From Nitrospirota bacterium (GTDB lineage Bacteria; Nitrospirota; Nitrospiria; Nitrospirales; Nitrospiraceae), in contig JACRLR010000032.1 in the NCBI GenBank assembly GCA_016219645.1, positions 1 to 43,196 of the forward strand: a DNA stretch of 43,196 nucleotides, given 5' to 3'. Position numbers and translations under genes: made by a program. Below are positions 28,736 through 41,650 of this stretch, piece by piece (positions within the stretch are counted from its first letter, which is position 1; each line of letters begins with the position of its first letter). Below the pieces are notes generated by a model, which did not search any database, was not told the DNA's origin, and was given only the letters and a program-made list of their open reading frames with translations.

Positions 28736-29440
28736 ATGCTGACGATTGCCTTGTCGAAGGGGAAAATGTTGGATCTCACGCTGGATGTCTTTCGCCGAGC
28801 TGGCTATGCCCTGGGCAGCTTCTCGAAGGAGAGCCGCCGGCTGGTGTTTCCCTGTCCTGAGATTGGAATGACCTTCCTGATCGTGCGGCCGACCGATGTG
28901 CCGGCCTATGTTGAACATGGGGCGGCGGATGTCGGGATTGTCGGGAAAGACGTCTTGATGGAGCAGGACAGCGATGTCTATGAGCCATTGGATTTAGGAT
29001 TCGGAGCGTGTAGAATTGCCGTCGCCGCGCTCAACGGGCAGGCGTCACGTGACCGGCTTTCATCAAAGATTCGTGTCGCAACCAAGTATCCGAAGGTCAC
29101 CGAGCGGTATTTCAATCAGCGCGGCATGCCGGTTGAAATCATCAAGCTGTACGGCTCGATTGAACTGGCGCCATTGGTCGGTCTGGCTGATCGAATCGTT
29201 GACTTAGTCGAGACGGGCAATACCTTAAAGGCGCATGGCCTGGTCGAGGTGGAGTGCATCGCGCGGTCCACGGCCCGGTTAGTCGTCAATCGAGCGAGTC
29301 TGAAGCTAAAGCATGCCGTGGTCACAGAGTTGATAGCAAATCTCCGGACCGCCACCAGCGCACCAACCGGGTCTCGAAAATCCGTTCCGCGCAAGTCTTC
29401 GCGCGGGGCAGGTCGAAAGGTTAGGCGGGCACTCAAATGA
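28736..29440 (+). CDS. hisG: ATP phosphoribosyltransferase, short form
   Basis: First enzyme of histidine synthesis (ATP + PRPP). The start at 28736 gives MLTIALSKGKMLDLTLDVF, typical of HisG, and 234 residues; the frame extends upstream inside murA and is not used. DVGIVGKDVLME and DLVETGNTLKAHGL (the PRPP-binding loop) are present. It lacks the C-terminal ACT-like regulatory domain of the long form, so by family knowledge it should need a HisZ partner, which is not in this window. The last 25 residues are a basic tail ([16 protein letters not shown]). Confidence 0.94.
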   Translation: MLTIALSKGKMLDLTLDVFRRAGYALGSFSKESRRLVFPCPEIGMTFLIVRPTDVPAYVEHGAADVGIVGKDVLMEQDSDVYEPLDLGFGACRIAVAALNGQASRDRLSSKIRVATKYPKVTERYFNQRGMPVEIIKLYGSIELAPLVGLADRIVDLVETGNTLKAHGLVEVECIARSTARLVVNRASLKLKHAVVTELIANLRTATSAPTGSRKSVPRKSSRGAGRKVRRALK

Positions 29441-30720
29441 AAATTGTAGCCTCCACCGAGCGAGCGTTCTCTCCCACACTCAAGAAGGTGACTTCGCGTG
29501 CCCGCGTGCAGGGGGCTGCCGTCGAGAAAACGGTCAAGTCGATCCTGCAAGCAGTGGAACGGGGCGGTGATAAAGCGGTCCTCCGCTATACAAAACAATT
29601 CGACCGCGTCTCTATGAAAGACTCTGAGCTGCGCGTCACCCCGGAAGAGATTAAAGAGGCCTATTTCCACATCCGGAAAGACGAGGGGGATGCACTCCGG
29701 TTCGCAGCCCAGCGGATCACATCATTCCATGAACGTCAGCGCATCAAGACCTGGATGTATCAGGACCACGAGGCCACGCTGGGCCAGGTGGTCACACCGG
29801 TCGATGCGGTCGGGGTCTACGTGCCGGGGGGCAAGGCCGTCTATCCCTCCTCAGTCTTGATGTGTGCCATTCCAGCCAAGGTCGCGGGCGTGTCCCGTAT
29901 AGTGATGTGTACCCCGCCTCAAAAAGGGCCGATCAATCCCTATTTGCTGGTCGCAGCCGACATTGCCGGAGTCACGGAGATCTATCGCGTCGGAGGTGTG
30001 CAAGCCATCGGCGCGATGGCCTACGGGACAAAGACGATCCAGCGCGTTGACAAAATCGTGGGCCCCGGCAATATCTATGTGGCGACGGCCAAACGGCTTC
30101 TGTACGGTGCAGTAGGACTCGACATGGTGGCAGGTCCGAGCGAACTGCTCGTTGTTGCGGATGGTGAAGCCAAGCCGTCACATGTTGCGGCAGATCTCCT
30201 GTGCGAAGCAGAACACGATGAAGATGCACAGGTCTATCTCGTGACCACATCAGCCCAGTTGGCAAAGGACGTGGTGCGACTGATCGAGAGCCAGTTGAAG
30301 GGGCTGCAACGGGAGAAAATCGCGGCCAAGTCCATCGCGCGTCATTCGGTGGCCTTCGTGGTCGCTACGATGGATGAAGCGATCCAGATCGCGAACGAAA
30401 TTGCCCCTGAACATTTGACCCTCTCGGTCGATGAGCCCTTTGAATATTTGGAGAAAATCCGTCATGCGGGGGCGCTCTTCCTGGGGCGGTATACTCCCCC
30501 ATCGGTCGCGGATTATATCGCTGGTCCGAATCATGTCTTGCCGACCGGTGGGACGGCCCGCTTTTTTTCGGCCCTGTCCGTACACGATTACATCAAGGTG
30601 AGCAACATCGTGCACTATACGCGTCAGGAGTTGAGTCGGGTAAAAGATCATCTCGTTCGGCTAGCCCATATCGAAGGGTTCGACGCCCATGCCAAGTCGG
30701 CCCAGAGCAGGTTCTCGTGA
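29437..30720 (+). CDS. hisD: Histidinol dehydrogenase
   Basis: Carries out the last two oxidations of histidine synthesis. It is 427 residues, a normal length. Motifs are [73 protein letters not shown] and [16 protein letters not shown] (zinc and catalytic residues). It overlaps hisG by ATGA and its own TGA overlaps the hisB GTG. Confidence 0.97.
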
Positions 30721-31325
30721 AGAAAAATGGCTGTGCCCCTCGACAATCGTCAATTCATCGAGCCACGAAAGAAACGGATATCTCTGTCGAATGGACGCTG
30801 GATGGCAATGGGCAGGGAAAGATCGACACAGGGATTCGATTCTTCGATCACATGCTGGAGTTGTTGTCCAAGCACGGTTTCTTCGACTTGACCGTCCAAG
30901 CCAAGGGCGATATCGACATCGACGAGCATCACACGGTAGAAGATGTCGGCATAGTCATGGGCAAAGCCTTGCATCAGGCCTTGGGGGAGAAGGCGGGGAT
31001 CAAGCGGTTTGGATTTGCTTCAGCCCCGCTGGATGAAACGCTGGCTCAGGTGACGGTCGACCTTAGCGGTCGGCCCTATCTCGTCTACAACGTGGCATTG
31101 CCGGATCGGAAGATCAAAGCCTTCGATTTAGGCTTGTTTGAGGATTTCTTCCAGGCCTTCGTCACCCACGGCGGTTTGAATCTCCACGTAAACCTCATGT
31201 ATGGCCGCAATCCGCACCACATCATGGAAGCTATCTTCAAAGCGCTAGCTAAGGCGCTCGATCAGGCGACGATGTTGGAAGAGCGGCTGGCAGGGAAGGT
31301 GCTGTCGACGAAGGGGCTGTTGTAG
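30717..31325 (+). CDS. hisB: Imidazoleglycerol-phosphate dehydratase
   Basis: Manganese-dependent dehydratase of histidine synthesis, 202 residues and monofunctional (no HisN phosphatase). Motifs are [34 protein letters not shown] and [17 protein letters not shown]. The start is GTG within the hisD stop (GTGA). Downstream the operon is interrupted by an antisense toxin-antitoxin pair and repeats before hisH. Confidence 0.96.
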
Positions 31326-31404
31326 CCTGTCGCGGGTCCTGTCACCAATCAGCCCAACCGTCCTCGCACCCCGCCCGGTGTAGGAGGGAATGGGTAACCC
31401 GTTA

Positions 31405-31468
31405 GTCTCCTTTGCTCGCGCAACGCGCGGCCTCCGAAGGCCCTCGTTGGACGCACGCAGCTGGAGAC
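31405..31468. repeat. Palindromic repeat, family 2, short copy
   Basis: Bounded by GTCTCC (31405-31410) and GGAGAC (31463-31468). The inside has TGCTCGCGCAACGCGCGG and CCCTCGTTGGACGC, both also found, in reverse complement, at 41415-41552; the first is also seen, with one extra C, at 36798-36815. It lies between hisB and the hepT stop. Confidence 0.7.
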
Positions 31469-31511
31469 CAATTGGGCCACATCAGATCTTGCAATCACAC
31501 ATCCGACCGCG

Positions 31512-31925
31512 TTAGGCGCACGCCTTCACGATCGTCGAAGAGAATGTACGGAAGTCGTCCAATTGTTTGGTAATGATGGCATGGACCACGTCCAGATTTA
31601 GGCGGGTGTATTCGTGCACAGCCACGTTACGGAAGCCGACCATTCGTTGCATCCGGGTTGCCAGATCGGCTGGGAGAATGCCTGCAGTTTGTAACAACGT
31701 AAATGCATCTCGGCTGTCCTGCGGCACGCCGAGCTTCCGCTGGCTGATGACATACATGGCGAGGTCAATGGCTGTTTCGCAGGCACGTTGAAGGTTGAGG
31801 ACGATCGCGTCTTGCTTCGTCTGGTTCGCCACCAGATTCTGTTTGTTCCCCGCATATTCTTCGAGCACGCGCAGTAGGCATCGTTCGATGGTGGCTGCTT
31901 TGTTGAGGACAACATCGTCAGCCAT
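31512..31925 (-). CDS. hepT: HEPN-type toxin HepT (DUF86)
   Basis: A 137-residue all-alpha HEPN protein. The Rx4HxY ribonuclease motif is complete at R99, H104 and Y106 (RNVAVHEY), the mark of the HepT toxin of the HEPN/MNT (type VII) toxin-antitoxin systems. In described systems the toxin is an RNase and is neutralised by MntA, which adds AMP to the tyrosine of this motif. It is the second gene of the pair and overlaps mntA by 8 bases. It lies antisense inside the his operon. Confidence 0.88.
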   Translation of the reverse strand: MADDVVLNKAATIERCLLRVLEEYAGNKQNLVANQTKQDAIVLNLQRACETAIDLAMYVISQRKLGVPQDSRDAFTLLQTAGILPADLATRMQRMVGFRNVAVHEYTRLNLDVVHAIITKQLDDFRTFSSTIVKACA

Positions 31926-32322
31926 AGATCAGCCCGCGCTGGGTAATGCCTTTCACAATTTCTCGCCGTTCCTCGTTGAGCCGAGCATAGTCTGCATAGG
32001 CGTACATCTCGAATGTTCGGTGGGCCGGCTCGTCCGGTGTATCGAGACAGCTTCCGGTCGAGATGACCTGTATCCTCATCACTGTTGATGCCGTGCGTAG
32101 GTCAACTAGATCGACATCGCGGTGGAGTTGTGTGGCCAACTCCTGAGAGATCTCAAATCGACGCAACGCGGGAATCGGGTCGCGCGCGAGCACGGCAAGG
32201 TCCACATCGCTGCCGGGGTGAGCGGTTCCCTTTGCTTGCGAGCCGAAGCGGTACAGGGCGATGAGGTCGGGTATAGACATTCTGATGTGTTTGATCAACG
32301 TCTGATCGTCCATGTCGGGCAC
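31918..32322 (-). CDS. mntA: MntA-type minimal nucleotidyltransferase antitoxin
   Basis: A 134-residue minimal nucleotidyltransferase with the GSx10DxD motif: GS at 27-28 and D39/D41 (FGSQAKGTAHPGSDVDLAVL). The third carboxylate is likely in VDLVDL. In characterised HepT/MntA pairs this enzyme AMPylates the toxin. The C-terminal helix (YAYADYARLNEERREIVKGI) is typical for the family. It is followed by hepT with an 8-base overlap. An ATG three codons later is also possible. Confidence 0.86.
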   Translation of the reverse strand: MPDMDDQTLIKHIRMSIPDLIALYRFGSQAKGTAHPGSDVDLAVLARDPIPALRRFEISQELATQLHRDVDLVDLRTASTVMRIQVISTGSCLDTPDEPAHRTFEMYAYADYARLNEERREIVKGITQRGLIYG

Positions 32323-32503
32323 CGTCCTTCGTGTCGGATCAGGCTACTGGTTCAGTCTGGCCCTGTCAATCTTCGGGCACTGATTCTTTATTACGGTCTG
32401 GTGGATTATTTGCGGTGGCTGGTTATGTTGTTTGCTAGTGGCAGGATCATTCTGGTTGCGGTATTGTTACGACCTCATAGCTAAACTAGGAGCAAGGGTG
32501 TGA
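32312..32503 (+). pseudogene. Small two-helix membrane protein frame with one in-frame TGA
   Basis: From an ATG at 32312 the frame gives 23 codons ending FSLALSIFGH, then TGA, then 39 codons (ITVWWIICGGWLCCLL..., RYCYDLIAKLGARV) to TGA. Removing the stop would give about 63 residues with two hydrophobic helices and a charged tail, which is unlikely to be chance. No ribosome site is obvious. It may be a decayed gene, a sequencing error, or chance; the N-terminus overlaps the antisense mntA start by 11 bases. Confidence 0.4.
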
Positions 32504-32535
32504 GAGGAATTAGGATTCTTCCCCCTGACATCCCG

Positions 32536-32705
32536 CAGGATGCTCAAAAAGGCCGTTCAGCAAGGCCGCAGGCAAGTCGAAACCGGAGGCGTACCCTCTG
32601 GGGTACGTTGAGGATTTCGATGAGCCGAGAACGATGCCTGGGAAAAGGCGCGTCTCGGCGCGCCTGGGTTGGGCGGGTGAGAAGGGCGACTTTTTCAGCA
32701 TCCTG
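32536..32705. repeat. Palindromic repeat, family 1, next to hisH
   Basis: A 170-base element beginning CAGGATGCTCAAAAAGGCC and ending CTTTTTCAGCATCCTG. The core is GGCGTACCCTCTGGGGTACG followed by TTGAGGATTTCG. The right half contains GGCGCGTCTCGGCGCGCC and GGGTTGGGCGGGTGAGAAG, the reverse complement of a module in 17633-17780 and 19090-19336. It ends 12 bases before the hisH ATG, so it forms the hisH leader. Confidence 0.85.
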
Positions 32706-32717
32706 CAAGAAAGTGAC

Positions 32718-33329
32718 ATGATTGCGATCATCGATTACGGCATGGGCAATCTCCGTAGTGTCTCCAAGGCCTTTGAGGCAGTGGGGCACCAGGCGATAGT
32801 CACGCGTGATCCACGCATGATCGGAAATGCGAGCCATGTTGTCCTGCCTGGTGTCGGGGCTTTTGGGGATTGCATGGCTAATGTCGAGCAGTATGGGCTA
32901 GCGGAACCGATTCGCGCGGCGATTCAATCAGGAAAACCTTTTCTGGGAATCTGCCTGGGACTCCAATTGTTGTTTGAAGAAAGTGAGGAATTTGGGACCC
33001 ACAAGGGGCTCGGTATCATACAAGGCAAGGTCAGACGATTTCCTGTCGATCAGGGGCTGAAAGTACCGCACATGGGTTGGAATAACGTCACGCTTGAACG
33101 GCCCTGCCCTCTATTCGAAGGGATTCCTAACGGGTCGTTCTGGTATTTTGTGCATTCGTTCTACGTCGATCCTTCTGACAAAGCTGTTGTGACAACCATG
33201 ACAGACTATGGAGCGACATTTGTGTCGGCGATCTGGCGGGACAATGTGGTGGCCTGCCAGTTCCATCCAGAGAAGAGTCAGTCCGTCGGGTTACGGTTGA
33301 TGAAAAATTTTGGATCCTGGCATGTGTAG
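32718..33329 (+). CDS. hisH: Imidazole glycerol phosphate synthase, glutaminase subunit
   Basis: Supplies ammonia to HisF. The start giving MIAIIDYGMGNLRSVSKAF yields 203 residues; the same frame is open through the repeat upstream, which is not real coding. The nucleophile is C79 in GICLGLQLLFE, and the His/Glu pair is in CQFHPEKSQSVG. The ribosome site is weak (AAGAAAG), and the family 1 repeat lies immediately upstream, so expression probably differs from the hisGDB part of the operon. Confidence 0.95.
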   Translation: MIAIIDYGMGNLRSVSKAFEAVGHQAIVTRDPRMIGNASHVVLPGVGAFGDCMANVEQYGLAEPIRAAIQSGKPFLGICLGLQLLFEESEEFGTHKGLGIIQGKVRRFPVDQGLKVPHMGWNNVTLERPCPLFEGIPNGSFWYFVHSFYVDPSDKAVVTTMTDYGATFVSAIWRDNVVACQFHPEKSQSVGLRLMKNFGSWHV

Positions 33330-36681: not shown

Positions 36682-36732
36682 CGCCTATTCACCAACTGAT
36701 CCTCCTTTACCAATCAATGTCCTGAATTGGAG

Positions 36733-36928
36733 AGGGAGCGGCCAGGTGCCCTTCTTGCTCGCAGAACAGAAGCGGGGTTGGAGCCTGATGCACTCCTGTG
36801 CTCGCGCAACGCCGCGGCTTCAGAAGGATGCGAGGGGGCAGGCAACCATCCTTCTTGCTCGCAGAGCCCCCACGATAAAGCGGTGGTCGCTCGATGCGCG
36901 CAGTGAAGGACGGTTTGCCTGCCCCCTC
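36733..36928. repeat. Palindromic repeat, family 2, long copy; left bracket of the accessory segment
   Basis: Positions 36733-36815 are nearly identical, inverted, to 41472-41552 (shared parts include AGGGAGCGGCCAGGTGCCC, TTCTTGCTCGCAGAACAGAAG in part, GGAGCCTGATG and GCTCGCGCAACGC). A second inverted pair lies inside: 36832-36853 (GAGGGGGCAGGCAA...) and 36906-36928. It starts about 50 bases after the HIT gene. Confidence 0.75.
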
Positions 36929-37177: not shown

Positions 37178-38221
37178 ATGAGCAGCTGGGCAAGAGGCCA
37201 CGAGAAATGTAACTCCTGCGGAACAACAGAGCATAAACATAAAGCCAGAGGACTTTGTGCGTCGTGTTACGACACTGTCTCAGAGACACGGGCTAAAATA
37301 CACATCACACGGAAAAGAGGAAGGCCTTTAGCCGTTCCCATAAAGAAGGAAGATCTGGAGAAAAAGTACAACTCTGGCCTATCACTCATCGATATAGCAC
37401 GCCAATACAACTGCACCCGTCAATACATCTATAAACTTTTAAAGCAGTACGCTCTTACCGTCAGGACAAAGAGCGAAGCAAGGGCTCTTGCCTTGAACCA
37501 GGGGAAAATTTCTTACAATTCCAACGTTTATTCCCCTGGCAAGACAATCAGTCATGAAAAGCGGCATGTCAATGAGTCTTTCTTCAAGACATGGACCCCT
37601 GCTATGGCGTACGTCCTTGGTGTCATCTATACAGATGGCTGTCTCGTTAAACCAATTGGTTCGGTCAAGTTCCGCGTAACCATTAGTCAGAAGGAGCCAG
37701 AATTATTGGAGAAAGTGCGGGCACTCATGGGAAGTGATGCATCAATACGTTATCGCGCTGCTCGTGGGATCGCTGGAGCGATTCATACGATGCTCATAGA
37801 CAGTCTAGACATTTACAGAGATCTCCAAGCTCTCGGTCTCACGGAGAACAAAAGTCTCACATTAAAGTTTCCGGAAATCCCATTTGAGTTAGTCGGGCAT
37901 TTTATCCGAGGCTGCTGGGACGGTGATGGCTCGGTCTATTGGGAGGGGGACGATAGGCGTAAGCCTTGCGCCAGTTATGTAAGTGGTTCAAAAGAGTTCA
38001 TTGAGTTGCTTGTGCAGCACCTGGTCGACCTAGGATTGCCTAACCGGACCATCCATAAATCGATGCGTAGTAAGAACCCCTCCTTTTACTTTCGTTTTAC
38101 TGGACTACCCTGCGTCAAACTCTACCATGTGCTCTATGATGGAGTTGATGAAAGCATGTATCTGACAAGAAAGCATTCGCGGTTCAAGGAAATCGATGGG
38201 TATTTTGAGGGGATCGTCTAG
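37178..38221 (+). CDS. LAGLIDADG endonuclease-like protein with zinc ribbon and HTH
   Basis: A 347-residue protein in three parts. First, a possible zinc ribbon with C11, C14, C27 and C30 (CNSCG...LCASC). Second, a helix-turn-helix at about 66-91 (LIDIARQYNCTRQYIYKLLKQY in part), resembling resolvase-type HTHs. Third, a two-motif LAGLIDADG domain: AYVLGVIYTDG (144-154) and FIRGCWDGDGS (242-252), each with its acidic residue. These are site-specific DNA cleavers, here not inside an intron or intein, so it is free-standing. The GC content is lower than its neighbours, in keeping with transfer. The target site is unknown. Confidence 0.82.
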   Translation: MSSWARGHEKCNSCGTTEHKHKARGLCASCYDTVSETRAKIHITRKRGRPLAVPIKKEDLEKKYNSGLSLIDIARQYNCTRQYIYKLLKQYALTVRTKSEARALALNQGKISYNSNVYSPGKTISHEKRHVNESFFKTWTPAMAYVLGVIYTDGCLVKPIGSVKFRVTISQKEPELLEKVRALMGSDASIRYRAARGIAGAIHTMLIDSLDIYRDLQALGLTENKSLTLKFPEIPFELVGHFIRGCWDGDGSVYWEGDDRRKPCASYVSGSKEFIELLVQHLVDLGLPNRTIHKSMRSKNPSFYFRFTGLPCVKLYHVLYDGVDESMYLTRKHSRFKEIDGYFEGIV

Positions 38222-41414: not shown

Positions 41415-41552
41415 GGAACAACCAAGCCGATCTTCCACTGTGCGCGTCCAACGAGGGGAGTCTTCGACCGCGCGTTGCGCGAGCATAGGAGATCATCAGG
41501 CTCCATCCCCCTCTTCTGTTCTGCGAGCAAGAAGGGCACCTGGCCGCTCCCT
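41415..41552. repeat. Palindromic repeat, family 2, inverted copy; right bracket of the accessory segment
   Basis: Positions 41472-41552 are the reverse complement of 36733-36815 with few differences. The part at 41415-41471 carries GTCCAACGAGGG and a tail shared with the short copy at 31405-31468. It directly adjoins the MITE-like element. Confidence 0.75.
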
Positions 41553-41650
41553 CCCATCTGTCCGAGATCATGCGCACGAGCCAAAGAAATCATCTGTCAA
41601 AGAATTTGGGGCTGGCAAGAGCATAAACGTACTGGAGCGTTCAGAAAATC

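What the first reader, a model, noticed from the sequence alone, without database searches (positions are those of the whole stretch)
31405..32705. Toxin-antitoxin pair inserted antisense into the histidine operon, bracketed by repeats
hisG-hisD-hisB overlap by a few bases, and hisH to HIT continue the same pathway order, but hepT-mntA on the opposite strand separates hisB from hisH. The cassette is flanked by a family 2 repeat (31405-31468) and a family 1 repeat (32536-32705). A type VII pair inside an essential biosynthetic operon may have entered by repeat-mediated insertion, and its transcription runs against hisGDB.
Basis: partly seen in the sequence, partly recalled or inferred. Interest (0 to 1): 0.72.

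Follow-up and report, generated by a model that had tools for sequence, protein, structure and literature searches.

The report
Accessory-gene hotspot splitting Nitrospira histidine genes
A common two-gene poison-and-antidote pair sits between two histidine-making genes of a Nitrospira bacterium, at a spot where related species keep gaining and losing different foreign genes, probably because this spot is a natural gap between two separately switched gene groups.

Summary
An intact type VII toxin-antitoxin pair (hepT 31512-31925, mntA 31918-32322, minus strand) lies between hisB and hisH, with genome-dispersed repeats at 31405-31468 and 32535-32706. The genome is Nitrospira.

Close relatives have short junctions (140-166 bp) without the pair, so hisB-hisH is a real insertion site. 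But it is a general hotspot (62 bp to 18.2 kb) holding, by species, HepT-MntA, DUF4238 genes, acyltransferases or a Tc-toxin locus; all other his junctions stay within -99 to +218 bp. The mntA tree rejects simple vertical descent (AU p = 0.0002), and several copies are decayed.

The repeats are not the vehicle: the hisH-side repeat is present in many species without the pair, and the left one does not bound other hepT-mntA copies.

The pair probably breaks no single transcript. Nitrospira hisB is usually followed by an intrinsic terminator, and hisH has its own conserved promoter-like block, seen once per genome. The hotspot lies mostly between these two.

A diverged duplicate of the hisB 3' end beside one insert, and a shared remnant in three other genomes, hint at integration into hisB in some lineages.

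The parts
28736..29440 (+). hisG
   Evidence: TIGR00070, 206 bits
29437..30720 (+). hisD
   Evidence: TIGR00069, 533 bits; overlaps hisG and hisB by 4 bp
30717..31325 (+). hisB; its nt 492-609 are duplicated beside an insert in relative G004
   Evidence: PF00475 7.7e-65; duplication
31332..31384 (+). 5' arm of a truncated covarying hairpin family; a complete copy lies directly behind hisB in G010
31512..31925 (-). hepT, HEPN RNase toxin, RX4HXY motif (RNVAVHEY) intact
   Evidence: motif by inspection, definition from PMC7641770
31918..32322 (-). mntA, adenylyltransferase antitoxin, GSX10DXD motif intact; likelier start is the ATG at 32313
   Evidence: motif by inspection, definition from PMC7641770
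32341..32369 (-). candidate mntA-hepT promoter TTGACA-N17-TAGCCT, also recognisable in L123 (another genus-level group)
   Evidence: inspection; not reported by the consensus scan
32437..32470 (+). conserved hisH-specific promoter-like block AGTGGCAGGA-N8-GTTGCGGTATTGTTAC
   Evidence: one site per genome at the hisB-hisH junction in 21 of 32 genomes with the strict pattern
32721..33329 (+). hisH
   Evidence: TIGR01855, 243 bits
34125..36681 (+). hisA, hisF, hisIE and HIT, downstream genes of the second unit

Best explanation
The hisB-hisH intergenic region of Nitrospira is an accessory-gene hotspot between two transcription units: hisGDB, usually ending in an intrinsic terminator, and hisH-lipoprotein-hisA-hisF-hisIE-HIT, starting at its own conserved promoter-like block. 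DNA landing between terminator and promoter damages neither unit, so cargo is tolerated and turns over quickly. In this genome the cargo is an intact type VII toxin-antitoxin pair, mntA-hepT, with its own promoter back to back with that of hisH, so it is transcribed away from hisH and convergently with hisGDB. By homology HepT is an RNase and MntA neutralises it by adenylylating the tyrosine of its RX4HXY motif. Shown here: gene identities and motifs, the variable junction, scattered and decayed copies, conservation of the block, presence of a terminator in most relatives. Inferred: that the block is a promoter, that this explains tolerance, that entry was mostly by recombination in the conserved flanks, and the activity of this particular pair.
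For: Junction length 62-18,163 bp within Nitrospira while every other his junction measured is -99 to 218 bp. Cargo differs between close species: HepT-MntA (window, G012, L135), decayed HepT-MntA plus Tc-toxin genes (G011) or Tc remnants (G025), mntA alone (G018, L123), DUF4238 (G029, L122), acyltransferase-3 (L124 by Pfam; L128, L129, L134 by resemblance). Sister species on the tree differ: window vs G030, G018 vs G023, G011 vs G017/G008/G009/G021. AU test rejects the his-tree topology for mntA, p = 0.0002, and a weaker constraint, p = 0.002. The block is hisH-specific with one site per genome and is conserved in both Nitrospira groups, at -42 to -44 from hisH in bare junctions. Of lineages with the block 17 of 34 have junctions of 500 bp or more; of those without it 1 of 23 (my count; not phylogenetically independent). 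Terminators behind hisB. HepT and MntA match the S. oneidensis pair of solved structures 5yep/6m6u-w/7bxo at E 2e-34 and 5e-23; mechanism from PMC7641770.
Against: No transcription data. The block matches a sigma-70 consensus weakly and the consensus scan does not report it. The window itself has no clear terminator behind hisB: palindromic repeats stand there. L135 carries the pair without a recognisable block. In G018 the 11-kb cargo lies between block and hisH, not between terminator and block. The species tree is built from his genes, which could themselves recombine. Most genomes are MAGs.
Confidence: 0.75

Rival explanations
1. The pair entered by repeat-mediated insertion or recombination between dispersed repeats.
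For: Both flanks carry dispersed repeats. In the G025/G027/G028 clade the segment hepT-mntA-block-repeat is joined to a MarR-gene region and hisH is elsewhere, so the repeat coincides with real breakpoints. G018's extra 11 kb ends in a repeat copy beside hisH.
Against: The right repeat is at the same place and orientation before hisH in at least 12 species without the pair at this site. The right edge of the shared cassette homology is not the repeat: homology runs from mntA through the hisH block. The left repeat is absent next to the other hepT-mntA copies, whose homology begins at the hepT stop codon.
Confidence: 0.1
2. HepT-MntA is an ancient resident of the junction, inherited vertically and lost many times.
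For: Same place, same orientation and a recognisable shared mntA upstream region in two genus-level groups (window, G012, G025, G011, L123); hepT divergence between window and L135 (81% nt) is about that of hisB (82%); several copies are pseudogenes, as expected of loss in progress.
Against: The mntA topology conflicts with the his tree (AU p = 0.0002 and 0.002): mntA of G018 groups with G012, not with the window's. In G018 mntA is on the other side of the block. Many losses would be needed.
Confidence: 0.2
3. The 3' end of hisB is an attachment site for a family of integrative elements which restore the hisB end on entry, as islands in 3' ends of tRNA or other genes do; the hotspot is the trail of such insertions.
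For: G004: intact hisB, then a 578-bp insert with two small ORFs, then a second copy of hisB nt 492-609 (88% identical, so not an assembly duplicate), followed by DNA that matches the start of the junction of other species. A 27-42 nt remnant of the same stretch (hisB from nt 497) with shared non-hisB flanks lies 146-967 bp behind hisB in G011, G025 and G027.
Against: No integrase in the junction proteins that were scanned. No such remnant in the window or in most relatives. No IMG/VR contig carries the core. Homology-assisted illegitimate recombination in hisB could leave the same duplication. Which of the two G004 copies is native by sequence is undecided.
Confidence: 0.2
4. The TA pair is functionally tied to histidine synthesis, for example by antisense or divergent-promoter control of hisB or hisH.
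For: mntA's candidate promoter and the hisH block lie back to back within about 130 bp, and the pair runs convergently with hisGDB.
Against: Most relatives lack the pair and close sisters differ; unrelated cargo occupies the same site; some copies are pseudogenes.
Confidence: 0.04

Closest known systems
HepT-MntA (HEPN/MNT) type VII toxin-antitoxin system, e.g. SO_3166/SO_3165 of Shewanella oneidensis
   Same: Domains, gene order (antitoxin upstream), 8-bp overlap, RX4HXY and GSX10DXD motifs, E 2e-34 and 5e-23 to the solved chains.
   Different: Only the location: between hisB and hisH, opposite to the his genes.
Chromosomal hotspots of horizontal transfer between core genes (PMC5635113)
   Same: A fixed core-gene interval with quickly changing cargo in related species. 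[quoted passage not shown]
   Different: Here the interval lies inside a conserved biosynthetic gene cluster, seemingly at a transcription-unit boundary that only this lineage has.
Islands integrated into the 3' end of a gene (from general knowledge)
   Same: Duplicated, diverged gene end at the far side of an insert in G004.
   Different: No integrase found; the target would be hisB, and I found no report of hisB as an attachment site in the papers searched.
MITE or REP-type dispersed palindromic repeats
   Same: Short, non-coding, with terminal inverted repeats and dozens of copies per genome.
   Different: No mobilising transposase was linked to them; the genome has one Y1_Tnp match, whose relation to these repeats was not tested.

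Membership tests
Type VII HepT-MntA TA system | HEPN (HepT-like, PF01934) protein encoded next to an MNT nucleotidyltransferase | tested here: met
Type VII HepT-MntA TA system | RX4HXY motif in the toxin | tested here: met
   RNVAVHEY in hepT; motif defined in PMC7641770
Type VII HepT-MntA TA system | GSX10DXD motif in the antitoxin | tested here: met
   GSQAKGTAHPGSDVD in mntA
Type VII HepT-MntA TA system | Toxicity of HepT and neutralisation by adenylylation | not testable with these tools
   needs expression experiments
HGT hotspot between core genes | Flanking core genes conserved and syntenic, interval content variable | tested here: met
   in some genomes hisB and hisH have been separated by rearrangement
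HGT hotspot between core genes | Cargo shows horizontal transfer | tested here: met
   mntA topology conflicts with the his tree, AU p = 0.0002; small data set with two decayed copies
HGT hotspot between core genes | Interval more variable than the genome-wide background | not tested
   compared only with the other his junctions
Integron gene cassette | attC site behind the gene (RYYYAAC...GTTRRRY) | tested here: not met
   GCCTAAC overlaps the hepT stop in the window only, not in other hepT copies
Integron gene cassette | IntI integrase in the genome | tested here: not met
   TIGR02249 over cut-off only in G016 and G019, not in the window's genome
Site-specific integrative element at hisB | Duplicated attachment core flanking the insert | tested here: inconclusive
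   present in G004, remnant in G011, G025, G027; absent in the window
Site-specific integrative element at hisB | Integrase or recombinase gene in the insert | tested here: inconclusive
   none among the junction proteins scanned with Pfam; not every ORF was scanned and elements may be remnants

The most novel reading that the evidence does not exclude
The 3' end of hisB (about nt 492-537, encoding the conserved [11 protein letters not shown] stretch) is an attachment site used by a so far unrecognised family of small integrative elements in Nitrospira, which restore hisB on entry and deliver toxin-antitoxin and other cargo into the hisB-hisH gap.
Probability: 0.2. Interest if true: 0.6.

Novelty: new member of a known kind. 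Interest (0 to 1): 0.42.

Why it matters
It turns a single odd insertion into a natural experiment. One interval inside a textbook biosynthetic gene cluster changes from a bare 140-bp junction to an 18-kb island between close species, while all neighbouring junctions stay tight. The likely reason, a terminator plus promoter splitting the his genes, is simple and testable: a split operon can turn a gene junction into a safe harbour for foreign genes. It also corrects the picture of a toxin pair inside an essential operon. The finding is otherwise ordinary: the pair is a standard type VII system.

Tried and rejected
Integron cassette: GCCTAAC at the hepT stop suggested an attC site, but it is not conserved in other copies, the IntI model is over cut-off only in G016 and G019, and folding of the region was unremarkable (z -1.36). 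Tn7-like or phage origin: no supporting gene in the junction proteins scanned and no viral relative of hepT in IMG/VR. Known RNA motif: no Rfam match in the window at gathering and none for the hairpin loci beyond tRNA and weak plastid hits. Literature: no paper on Nitrospira combining genomic island and histidine biosynthesis, and none relevant on hisB as integration site. Which G004 hisB copy is native could not be decided by identity to sisters. One paper search failed on an unusable term.

Full report
What is there. The window is contig 32 of a 3.65-Mb genome whose relatives are Nitrospira. hisG, hisD and hisB overlap by 4 bp. After hisB (30717-31325) come, on the opposite strand, hepT (31512-31925) and mntA (31918-32322), then hisH (32721-33329), a lipoprotein-like gene, hisA, hisF, hisIE and HIT. 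HepT and MntA pass the NCBIfam equivalog cut-offs, match the S. oneidensis pair of known structure, and keep the RX4HXY and GSX10DXD motifs that define the system (PMC7641770). So the pair is intact and ordinary in kind.

The repeats. Both flanking repeats are dispersed in the genome. The right one (32535-32706) is a MITE-like palindrome with terminal inverted repeats. The left one (31405-31468) is a hairpin. A third palindromic family, cut short here, lies right behind hisB (31332-31384).

The junction in relatives. I measured the gaps between neighbouring his genes in Nitrospira and relatives. Every junction except hisB-hisH stays between -99 and 218 bp. hisB-hisH is 2-211 bp in outgroup families and 62-18,163 bp in Nitrospira. 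Bare junctions of 140-166 bp exist in G036, G017, G021, G026 and G009. Filled ones hold HepT-MntA (window, G012, L135), mntA without hepT (G018, L123), decayed HepT-MntA behind a Tc-toxin locus (G011, 18.2 kb) or behind Tc remnants with a broken mntA (G025), DUF4238 genes (G029 and L122 by Pfam; G031 and G005 by resemblance), acyltransferases (L124 by Pfam; L128, L129, L134 by resemblance) and others. A weak ParE/Phd pair stands behind hisB in L132, where hisH is not adjacent. In a tree of hisG+hisD+hisB, sister species differ: window vs G030, G018 vs G023, G011 vs four relatives. The hotspot reading follows directly.

Recent insertion or old resident? Neither extreme fits. The pair is absent from most relatives, yet it occurs at the same place and in the same orientation in another genus-level group. 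hepT is 74-81% identical at the DNA level between junction copies, somewhat below hisB (80-87%). The mntA tree among junction copies rejects the his topology (AU p = 0.0002; weaker constraint p = 0.002); the mntA of G018 groups with G012 and not with its near relative, the window. Repeated gain or exchange at one site, with frequent decay, is the best reading. Caveats: a short gene, two decayed copies, and a reference tree made of his genes.

Why here? In bare junctions hisB is followed by a GC-rich hairpin and a T run (for example GGGGACAGGC...GCCTGTCCCC-TTTTT), then by a 34-nt block AGTGGCAGGA-N8-GTTGCGGTATTGTTAC that starts about 60 nt before hisH. A strict pattern for the block hits 21 of 32 genus genomes, one site each, always on the hisB-hisH contig; with mismatches allowed it is found in nearly all Nitrospira with the junction on one contig, in both groups, and not in the outgroups or in L135-L139. 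Its TATTGT lies 18 nt from GTGGCA and about 36 nt from the hisH start, a geometry that suits a promoter, though the consensus match is weak and the consensus scan does not report it. The pair in the window lies between hisB and this block. Its own candidate promoter, TTGACA-N17-TAGCCT on the minus strand, points the other way; the stretch is still recognisable in L123. So cargo here sits between two transcription units. By my count, 17 of 34 lineages with the block have junctions of 500 bp or more against 1 of 23 without it; these are not independent data points. In the window the hisB terminator is not recognisable and palindromic repeats stand in its place.

Were the repeats the vehicle? No. 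The right repeat is just before hisH in the same orientation in many species without the pair. Homology between different hepT-mntA copies starts at the hepT stop codon and runs through mntA and the hisH block, so neither repeat marks a common cassette end. The right repeat does coincide with breakpoints later on: in G025, hisB, Tc remnants, hepT-mntA, the block and the repeat are followed by a MarR-gene region which in G027 is joined to the same segment about 60 kb from hisB, and hisH lies elsewhere in G028.

A hint of an entry mechanism. In G004, intact hisB is followed by a 578-bp insert, then by a second, 88%-identical copy of hisB nt 492-609, and then by DNA that matches the normal downstream flank of relatives. 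This is what integration into the 3' end of a gene leaves behind. G011, G025 and G027 share a 27-42 nt remnant of the same hisB stretch with common foreign flanks. No recombinase was found in the junction proteins scanned, the core is absent from IMG/VR, and the window carries no such remnant, so this remains a lead and not the explanation of the window.

Verdict. The TA pair is a normal type VII system in an accessory-gene hotspot between what look like two histidine transcription units of Nitrospira. The hotspot is worth recording; the pair itself is not unusual.

Noticed in passing
window 31332-31384 (truncated); complete copies L066 604-700 and 27 places: A dispersed hairpin family of about 97 nt in Nitrospira and relatives: variable stems with strong covariation (16 of 32 pairs with double changes, 43 double-change cells against 10.0 in shuffles) around an invariant tip CACCCCGCCCGGTGTAGGGNCCCCGC. 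No Rfam match. 33 of 61 genomes have it, up to 21 copies per genome, some directly behind a gene. It may be an undescribed structured RNA or a hairpin mobile element.
   Followed up: partly
L088 993-17657 (G011): Two giant genes with SpvB/TcdB and TcA domains (a Tc-type toxin complex) sit between hisB and hisH; remnants remain beside hepT in G025.
   Followed up: partly
L043/L120 (G004), hisB region: A 578-bp insert with two small ORFs of unknown family, flanked by a diverged duplicate of the hisB 3' end.
   Followed up: partly
L126 from 10603: hisB is followed after 6 bp by the lipoprotein gene and hisA; hisH is missing from the cluster.
   Followed up: no
L094 2385-4679 (G024): Shortened hisG and hisD reading frames are followed directly by the MITE-like repeat and hisH, and no hisB was found in this 70%-complete genome; either a deletion or an assembly problem.
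   Followed up: no
window 37178-38221: A reading frame with a LAGLIDADG_3 domain (E 6.4e-11) and a weak helix-turn-helix match lies behind the his genes.
   Followed up: no
G016:C280:2834-3772 and G019:C10:192882-193826: True integron integrases (TIGR02249 over cut-off) in two Nitrospira genomes; cassette arrays were not examined.
   Followed up: no
window 36732-36865 and 41508-41565: Another repeat with 98% inverted complementarity over 46 nt (CCCTTCTTGCTCGCAGAACAGAAG) lies behind HIT and again near 41.5 kb.
   Followed up: no
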